From contig SVAI01000001.1 of NCBI GenBank assembly GCA_015059495.1, forward strand, positions 124,001 to 188,000: 64,000 bases of DNA, in the 5' to 3' direction. Within the stretch, counting starts at the first letter, position 1; every line of letters begins with the position of its first letter. Positions 36,292-37,064 of this stretch are shown piece after piece. Both the position numbers and the translations under genes were made by a program. Origin of the DNA: Bacillota bacterium (GTDB lineage Bacteria > Bacillota_I > Bacilli_A > RF39 > UBA660). Below the pieces are notes generated by a model. That model ran no database searches. It was not told where the DNA came from and saw nothing but the letters and a program-made list of their open reading frames with translations.

Positions 36292-36598
36292 GGAGGGATA
36301 GCGAAGTGGTCAAACGCGGCAGACTGTAGTCCTAATAACGACTCGTTATTAAATTGCACCTTTATATAGTGATATATAAAGTGGACGCTGCTAATTCGGG
36401 GAAGACTAAAGCATTTAATGTATGTTAATCCCGAGCTAAGATACTTTGATATCTGAGTGTAGAGACTTTACACAGCGTATCTCAACAGAGATAAAGAGAA
36501 AGTCCAGACTACAAATACATATTTGTAGCAGTGAAAACTGTAGTAGTAGGAAATCTGTTCCTTCGGGTTCCATGGTTCAAATCCATGTCCCTCCACCA
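36292..36598 (+). tRNA. tRNA-Tyr(GTA), interrupted by a group I intron in the anticodon
   Basis: Exon 1 36292-36327 ggagggatagcgaagtggtcaaacgcggcagactgt; exon 2 36551-36598 aaatctgttccttcgggttccatggttcaaatccatgtccctccacca; joined gives a full tRNA-Tyr with long variable arm. Confidence 0.92.
36328..36550 (+). mobile_element. ORF-less group I self-splicing intron (boundaries +/-1 nt)
   Basis: P2-like TTTATATA(36361-36368)/GTGA/TATATAAA(36373-36380); P3 ACGCTG(36385-36390)/CAGCGT(36473-36478); P4 TCGGG(36396-36400)/CCCGA(36430-36434); P6 AGATA/TATCT(36439-36454); P7 GACTT(36464-36468)/AAGTC(36500-36504); P8 TATCTC/AACA/GAGATA(36478-36493); P9 CTACAAAT/ACAT/ATTTGTAG(36509-36528); CAGT/GAAA/ACTG(36529-36540); U before 5' site, G at 3' end. 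Confidence 0.92.
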
Positions 36599-36610
36599 CT
36601 TAGATAATTA

Positions 36611-36636
36611 CTCAACGAAAGTTGAGTTTTTTTATT
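36611..36636 (+). terminator. Terminator of tRNA operon
   Basis: ctcaac-gaaa-gttgag-tttttttta. Confidence 0.8.
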
Positions 36637-36689
36637 TTACTTAAGTGCTTGAAATGGTATAATATTTATAAGATCTGGGGGGGATTTTG

Positions 36690-37064
36690 ATGACTTATAC
36701 TAACAAACAAATAGGAAACGCGGCACTCGGAACTGCGATAGGTTATTTTACTAATGAAGGGTATACTGTATCTATACCACTAAATGACACTCAAGATTAC
36801 GATCTTATAGTAGATATAGAAGGCAAACTTCATAAAGTTCAGGTTAAGGGCACAACATTCAAAACAAAATATGATGTATACCAAGTTAGTTTAAAGAGTT
36901 CTGGAGGGACAAAAGGGAAAATCTATAAAACAATTAAAGATACAGACGTTGATTTAACTTTTGTTGCTTGTGAAGATGGTCAAATGTTTTTGATTCCAAA
37001 AGAAGCGTTAAATAATACCAGTACACTAAACTTAGGCAAGGAATATCTTGAATATAGATTATAG
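36690..37064 (+). CDS. Group I intron-associated-type PD-(D/E)XK endonuclease
   Basis: GNAALGTAIGYFTNEGYTVSIPLNDTQDYDLIVDIEGKLHKVQVKGT: D-x(n)-QVK catalytic signature. Confidence 0.75.
   Translation: MTYTNKQIGNAALGTAIGYFTNEGYTVSIPLNDTQDYDLIVDIEGKLHKVQVKGTTFKTKYDVYQVSLKSSGGTKGKIYKTIKDTDVDLTFVACEDGQMFLIPKEALNNTSTLNLGKEYLEYRL

What the first reader, a model, noticed from the sequence alone, without database searches (positions are those of the whole stretch)
36292..37064. Possible split homing unit: ORF-less tRNA-Tyr intron plus adjacent free-standing PD-(D/E)XK endonuclease
The intron carries no ORF, but the next gene (ATG at 36690, ~90 bp after the tRNA) encodes a 124-aa PD-(D/E)XK protein with DYDLIVDIEGKLHKVQVKG. 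Precedent: I-Ssp6803I, a PD-(D/E)XK homing endonuclease encoded within a cyanobacterial tRNA-fMet group I intron. Here the endonuclease is outside the intron and has its own weak promoter and a ggggggg RBS. This would suit collaborative homing: cleavage of intronless tRNA-Tyr alleles with repair co-converting intron, downstream exon and endonuclease gene.
Basis: partly seen in the sequence, partly recalled or inferred. Interest (0 to 1): 0.85.

Follow-up and report, generated by a model that had tools for sequence, protein, structure and literature searches.

The report
Split tRNA-intron and endonuclease homing pair
A self-splicing intron interrupts this gut bacterium's only tRNA-Tyr gene, and the DNA-cutting enzyme that would spread the intron is encoded just outside it; relatives carry the same enzyme gene either outside or inside the same intron, which makes a rare and little-tested step in mobile-intron evolution visible in living bacteria.

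Summary
Confirmed and extended. Window 36292-36598 is tRNA-Tyr(GUA) split by a 223-nt ORF-less group I intron. The gene at 36690-37064 is a 124-aa PD-(D/E)XK protein (PF11645, E=9e-20) whose model best matches the homing endonuclease I-Ssp6803I. The arrangement is not a one-off: in a scan of bacterial genomes, 37 of 69 related loci have the endonuclease just downstream of an intron-bearing tRNA-Tyr. In 7 Bacilli loci it lies inside that same intron; only 3 sit beside an intronless tRNA-Tyr, and all 3 are damaged or altered. In 197 clostridial genomes, those with an intact endonuclease almost always lack the uninterrupted tRNA-Tyr site (13/15 versus 48/182; p=5e-6). A same-genus relative has the empty state: intronless tRNA-Tyr and no endonuclease, with the same right-hand gene. 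Intronic endonucleases are not one clade (AU p=0.0003); the simplest history is a free-standing gene captured by the intron twice. Phage relatives often abut phage tRNA-Tyr genes. Best reading: a chromosomal 'collaborative homing' pair, in which the intron protects tRNA-Tyr from the enzyme and the enzyme spreads the intron. Cleavage and splicing are not shown. New variant of a known kind.

The parts
36292..36327 (+). tRNA-Tyr 5' exon, ending CAGACUGU
   Evidence: sequence; pairs with the 3' exon acceptor stem; missed by ARAGORN
36328..36550 (+). ORF-less group I intron between U35 and A36 of the GUA anticodon
   Evidence: RF00028 58.9 bits; covarying core helices in 30 relatives; P1/P10-type pairing of exon ends with UUGCA
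36551..36598 (+). tRNA-Tyr 3' exon with encoded CCA
   Evidence: sequence; 98% identical over 51 bp to the tRNA-Tyr of a same-genus genome
36610..36636 (+). intrinsic terminator after the tRNA operon
   Evidence: z=-4.7
36636..36663 (+). extended -10 type promoter of the endonuclease gene (consensus match only)
36677..36683 (+). G7 run, possible ribosome-binding site
   Evidence: sequence; relatives have GGAGG-type sites here
36690..37064 (+). free-standing PD-(D/E)XK homing-type endonuclease, 124 aa
   Evidence: PF11645 E=8.7e-20; model pLDDT 90, best PDB match I-Ssp6803I TM 0.82; orthologues inside or beside tRNA-Tyr introns
37067..37092 (+). terminator-like hairpin after the endonuclease gene
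   Evidence: z=-3.9
37106..37483 (+). 125-aa membrane-protein ORF in the same ~890-bp insert relative to the same-genus genome; role unknown
37554..38339 (+). Hpt/response-regulator gene: conserved right flank that directly follows the intronless tRNA-Tyr in the same-genus genome

Best explanation
A split homing pair on a bacterial chromosome. The free-standing PD-(D/E)XK enzyme cuts uninterrupted tRNA-Tyr genes at or near the anticodon. The group I intron sits in that site, so it protects the resident copy and splices out of the essential tRNA. After cutting a recipient's intronless tRNA-Tyr, repair from the donor copies the intron, the short 3' exon and the adjacent endonuclease gene (its ATG is 140 bp from the 3' splice site) as one tract. 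In two Bacilli lineages the same gene moved into the intron's P1 loop, giving an ordinary mobile intron. Shown: anatomy, homology, linkage, both arrangements, the empty site, and association of an intact enzyme with an occupied site. Inferred: cleavage, splicing, co-conversion.
For: Intron and PF11645 enzyme identified; fold matches I-Ssp6803I, with the D38/Q51/K53 motif invariant in 34 relatives. The same enzyme lies inside the same tRNA-Tyr intron in Bacilli and 105-216 bp past the 3' splice site of ORF-less introns in 37 loci. Empty site in the same genus. Intact enzyme versus intronless site: Fisher p=5.5e-6 in 197 genomes; enzymes beside intronless tRNA-Tyr are deleted, truncated or altered. 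Intron and enzyme trees agree on window+L002 and on Bacilli versus Clostridia. Purifying selection, dN/dS about 0.08-0.2. Phage relatives often abut tRNA-Tyr.
Against: No cleavage, splicing or mobility data. The association is not corrected for shared descent. Exceptions: L046 is full-length beside an intronless tRNA-Tyr (two conserved residues changed); G160 has an intact enzyme elsewhere plus an intronless tRNA-Tyr; G157 has an intron-bearing copy plus a divergent intronless one. Many tRNA-Tyr introns persist without the enzyme. Most genomes are MAGs. Some phage relatives sit beside other tRNAs.
Confidence: 0.75

Rival explanations
1. The endonuclease gene was originally inside the intron and was moved out in the window lineage; it is now a relic or selfish remnant that homes little or not at all.
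For: Its closest relative (L002/L009, 73%) is intronic; one relative (G045) shows an intron that lost its ORF but kept the ribosome-binding-site remnant.
Against: The gene is intact with all conserved residues and its own promoter-like and terminator elements. The downstream position is the rule in Clostridia and phage outgroups are free-standing, so two captures (2 changes) beat one capture plus two exits. The outgroup branches are long, so the direction is not certain.
Confidence: 0.15
2. Independent intronless homing: the enzyme drives only its own gene into the tRNA-Tyr downstream spacer, and the intron is merely a resistant allele carried along.
For: Phage relatives are free-standing beside intronless tRNA-Tyr genes; some intronless chromosomal loci carry the enzyme or its remains.
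Against: Chromosomal enzymes beside intronless tRNA-Tyr are damaged or altered; intact ones sit with the intron. The enzyme twice occurs inside the intron, which would work at once only if it already targets the intron site.
Confidence: 0.12
3. Linkage by inheritance only: the nuclease has another role (defence, repair) and its position next to tRNA-Tyr is historical.
For: PD-(D/E)XK folds serve many roles; the top fold matches after I-Ssp6803I are restriction enzymes and Argonaute-linked nucleases.
Against: Linkage to tRNA-Tyr holds across Bacilli, Clostridia and diverse phages with different gene orders, and inside an intron; best match by sequence and fold is a homing enzyme; distribution is patchy (10 of 386 genomes).
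Confidence: 0.04

Closest known systems
Collaborative homing: F-CphI and the psbA intron of cyanophage S-PM2 (PMC6083498; Zeng et al. 2009)
   Same: Free-standing endonuclease next to an intron-bearing gene; ORF-less group I intron; the intron protects the resident gene from the enzyme.
   Different: That is a phage, a protein gene and an Endo VII-type enzyme with proven cleavage. Here: bacterial chromosome, tRNA-Tyr, PD-(D/E)XK, no biochemistry, and relatives with the gene inside the intron.
I-Ssp6803I and the tRNA-fMet group I intron of Synechocystis
   Same: PD-(D/E)XK homing enzyme family (PF11645; TM 0.82 to 2ost), linked to a tRNA anticodon-loop group I intron.
   Different: I-Ssp6803I is encoded inside its intron and targets tRNA-fMet; this one is outside, 26% identical in the fold alignment, and linked to tRNA-Tyr.
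Free-standing PF11645 relatives in phage tRNA clusters (phages CP14, UPEC06, K54, Chester)
   Same: Homologous protein, gene abutting tRNA-Tyr.
   Different: No intron; 28-47% identical; intronless homing presumed.

Membership tests
Group I intron | Conserved catalytic core and helices P3-P9 | tested here: met
   RF00028 58.9 bits over the 50-bit cut-off; 25 of 46 pairs with compensatory change
Group I intron | U before the 5' splice site pairing with G of the guide sequence; terminal G | tested here: met
   CUGU| with GCA(G/C) and intron 3' end G in the relatives examined
Group I intron | Self-splicing in vitro | not testable with these tools
   needs RNA
PF11645 / I-Ssp6803I-type homing endonuclease | Sequence profile, fold and active-site motif | tested here: met
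   E=8.7e-20; PDB profile hit 2ost E=7e-5; TM 0.82; D38, Q51, K53 invariant
PF11645 / I-Ssp6803I-type homing endonuclease | Site-specific cleavage of the intronless allele | not testable with these tools
   needs protein
Collaborative homing pair | Free-standing endonuclease gene linked to an ORF-less intron-bearing gene | tested here: met
   window plus 37 genome loci
Collaborative homing pair | Intact endonuclease goes with an occupied (intron-bearing) target | tested here: met
   13/15 versus 48/182 lacking the uninterrupted site, p=5.5e-6; exceptions G157, G160, L046; not corrected for descent
Collaborative homing pair | Enzyme target coincides with the intron insertion site | not testable with these tools
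   indirect only: the same enzyme occurs inside the intron
Composite mobile intron (enzyme encoded in the intron) | Endonuclease ORF within the intron | tested here: not met
   window ORF lies 140 bp beyond the 3' splice site; met in L002, L003, L010-L012, L017, L018

The most novel reading that the evidence does not exclude
A widespread chromosomal collaborative-homing system at tRNA-Tyr in Bacilli and Clostridia, in which a free-standing, tRNA-Tyr-targeting phage-type endonuclease first partnered with a group I intron and was then captured by that intron at least twice: a natural series showing how mobile introns are assembled.
Probability: 0.55. Interest if true: 0.82.

Novelty: new variant of a known kind. 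Interest (0 to 1): 0.75.

Why it matters
In the literature read here, collaborative homing rests on work with two phages (PMC3984707) and the origin of mobile introns by endonuclease capture is an inferred pathway. Here one enzyme family and one intron family at one gene show all the stages: intronless with a damaged enzyme, ORF-less intron plus adjacent enzyme, enzyme inside the intron, and intron with the enzyme deleted. That makes the pathway testable with simple cleavage assays on natural alleles. It also explains why a tRNA finder such as ARAGORN reports no tRNA-Tyr in the window.

Tried and rejected
RF00028 search over whole genomes with strict filters missed the window's own intron, so a conserved 18-mer was used instead. 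NCBIfam has no model for the enzyme. The lead that the window gene is a unique relocation was dropped when Clostridia proved to have the same layout. Odd upstream contexts of displaced genes (L014, L041, L053, L056, L064) were scanned with Rfam and gave no family. L004 (31% identity) was set aside as distant and L217 (36%) as a separate tRNA-cluster gene. Literature searches found no report of a tRNA-Tyr group I intron with an adjacent PD-(D/E)XK gene in the open-access library, which is not proof of absence.

Full report
What is there. Window 36292-36598 is a tRNA-Tyr(GUA) gene interrupted between the second and third anticodon bases by a 223-nt intron (36328-36550). ARAGORN and Rfam's default scan of the full window both miss it, but a focused scan gives RF00028 (group I intron) at 58.9 bits against a cut-off of 50. 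The 5' exon ends CUGU, the conserved UUGCA of the intron can pair with it, and the 3' exon AAAUCUG continues the anticodon arm. Thirty related introns fold into a common core with 25 of 46 pairs showing compensatory change. The genome has no uninterrupted copy with the sequence AGACTGTAAATCT, so the intron presumably splices.

The neighbour. The CDS 36690-37064 (124 aa) begins 91 bp after the tRNA's CCA end, beyond an intrinsic terminator and next to its own promoter-like sequence. It matches PF11645, PD-(D/E)XK endonuclease (E=8.7e-20). Its AlphaFold2 model (pLDDT 90) is closest in the PDB to I-Ssp6803I (2ost, TM 0.82, E=8e-9; the best other entry has E=2e-3), and a sequence profile finds the same entry (E=7e-5). 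D38, Q51 and K53 are invariant in 34 relatives.

The same enzyme inside the intron. In two genomes of the same family the orthologue (73% and 58% identical) is not downstream but inside the tRNA-Tyr intron, between the 5' exon and the intron core. A scan of GTDB species genomes gave 69 loci. By direct inspection: 37 have the gene 105-216 bp past the 3' splice site of an intron-bearing tRNA-Tyr, like the window (140 bp); 5 have it further downstream (301-1187 bp); 7 have it inside the intron (all Bacilli-type loci); 3 have it beside an intronless tRNA-Tyr; the other 17 are at contig edges or in displaced positions. Three of the displaced loci (L021, L032, L061) retain only the last bases of tRNA-Tyr plus its terminator and one (L026) a longer 3' piece, as if an element had integrated into the tRNA (inference).

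Empty site. A genome of the same genus (G101) has an intronless tRNA-Tyr followed, after a terminator, by the same Hpt/response-regulator gene that lies at window 37554. Relative to it the window has gained the intron and about 890 bp (36602-37493: terminator, endonuclease, a 125-aa membrane ORF) between the tRNA 3' end and that gene. Joint gain is what homing predicts; joint loss in G101 is not excluded.

Intact enzyme means occupied site. In an even draw of 197 genomes of one clostridial family, 136 have the uninterrupted sequence AGACTGTAAATCTG, 57 have the intron core in some tRNA and 15 have an essentially full-length enzyme. Only 2 of the 15 also have the uninterrupted sequence, against 134 of 182 others (Fisher p=5.5e-6). 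One of the two (G337) is truncated and breaks three conserved positions; the other (G157) has an intron-bearing tRNA-Tyr and a divergent second one. In 50 enzyme-bearing genomes of the scan, 7 have the uninterrupted sequence; the enzyme is broken or truncated in 4. Genes beside intronless tRNA-Tyr are all damaged or altered: L072 and L073 lack the middle of the protein, L046 changes two conserved residues including an otherwise conserved glycine, and G294, G374 and G160 show remnants. Intact genes, both inside and outside introns, show dN/dS of about 0.08-0.2. The test is not corrected for shared ancestry, and G160 (intact enzyme elsewhere plus an intronless tRNA-Tyr) is a real exception unless the MAG is mixed.

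History. The enzyme tree puts the window with L002/L009 (100/99) in a Bacilli clade (98/96), with Clostridia, all outside the intron, around it. The intronic genes are not one clade (AU p=0.0003), and two changes of position suffice on the tree. The intron tree also joins the window with L002 and separates Bacilli from Clostridia, each at 100/100. Rooted on free-standing phage relatives, two captures by the intron are simpler than one capture and two exits; the phage branches are long, so this is favoured, not proven. G045 shows a further stage, a tRNA-Tyr intron whose ORF is gone but whose ribosome-binding-site stretch remains.

Phage connection. Forty-two phage records hold relatives (28-47% identity in the listed ones). 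In CP14, UPEC06, K54 and Chester the gene abuts or overlaps tRNA-Tyr, and in two IMG/VR contigs it lies within about 100 bp of one; in SelmaRatti, Pylo and Wilder it abuts other tRNAs of the same clusters. This suggests an enzyme lineage already aimed at tRNA-Tyr before it met the intron (inference).

Known systems. [quoted passage not shown] a review describes two phage cases and proposes that illegitimate recombination into the intron would then create a composite mobile intron (PMC3984707). The window fits that mechanism, but on a bacterial chromosome, in a tRNA, with a PD-(D/E)XK enzyme, and with relatives at the proposed later stage. I therefore file it as a new variant of a known kind. 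The steps not shown are cleavage of the intronless allele, resistance of the intron-bearing allele, self-splicing, and co-transfer.

Noticed in passing
L081, L090, L017, L018, L085 (tRNA-Thr region): Closely related group I introns interrupt tRNA-Thr(UGU), next to tRNA-Tyr, in several genomes of the window's family; some carry an HNH endonuclease ORF, others none (L011, L084, L089).
   Followed up: partly
L100, L123, L124, L129: The same intron type also appears in what looks like tRNA-Met in Clostridia; in 30 sampled loci I count 12 Tyr, 14 Thr, 4 Met.
   Followed up: partly
L078 around 2830-3430: A phage tRNA-Tyr is split at GACTGTA by a complete second tRNA-Tyr plus the endonuclease gene, without a group I core: looks like a break at the anticodon repaired with donor DNA, or an assembly error.
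   Followed up: no
L002 1489-1504: The intronic orthologue nearest the window has ATA where relatives have ATG, at the right distance from GGAGG; it may be poorly expressed.
   Followed up: no
L053, L056, L064, L216 upstream of the endonuclease: A recurring stretch (GGATAATAAGGTGCTT...TAAGGCACCA, then a hairpin) precedes displaced endonuclease genes; no Rfam family matched at gathering thresholds in L053, L056 and L064.
   Followed up: partly
window 37106-37483: 125-aa predicted membrane protein in the same insert as the endonuclease; no Pfam match above the curated cut-offs and absent from the other loci held here.
   Followed up: partly
L021, L032, L061, L026: Only the 3' end of tRNA-Tyr and its terminator precede the endonuclease, as if an integrative element had entered the tRNA gene and displaced the rest.
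   Followed up: no
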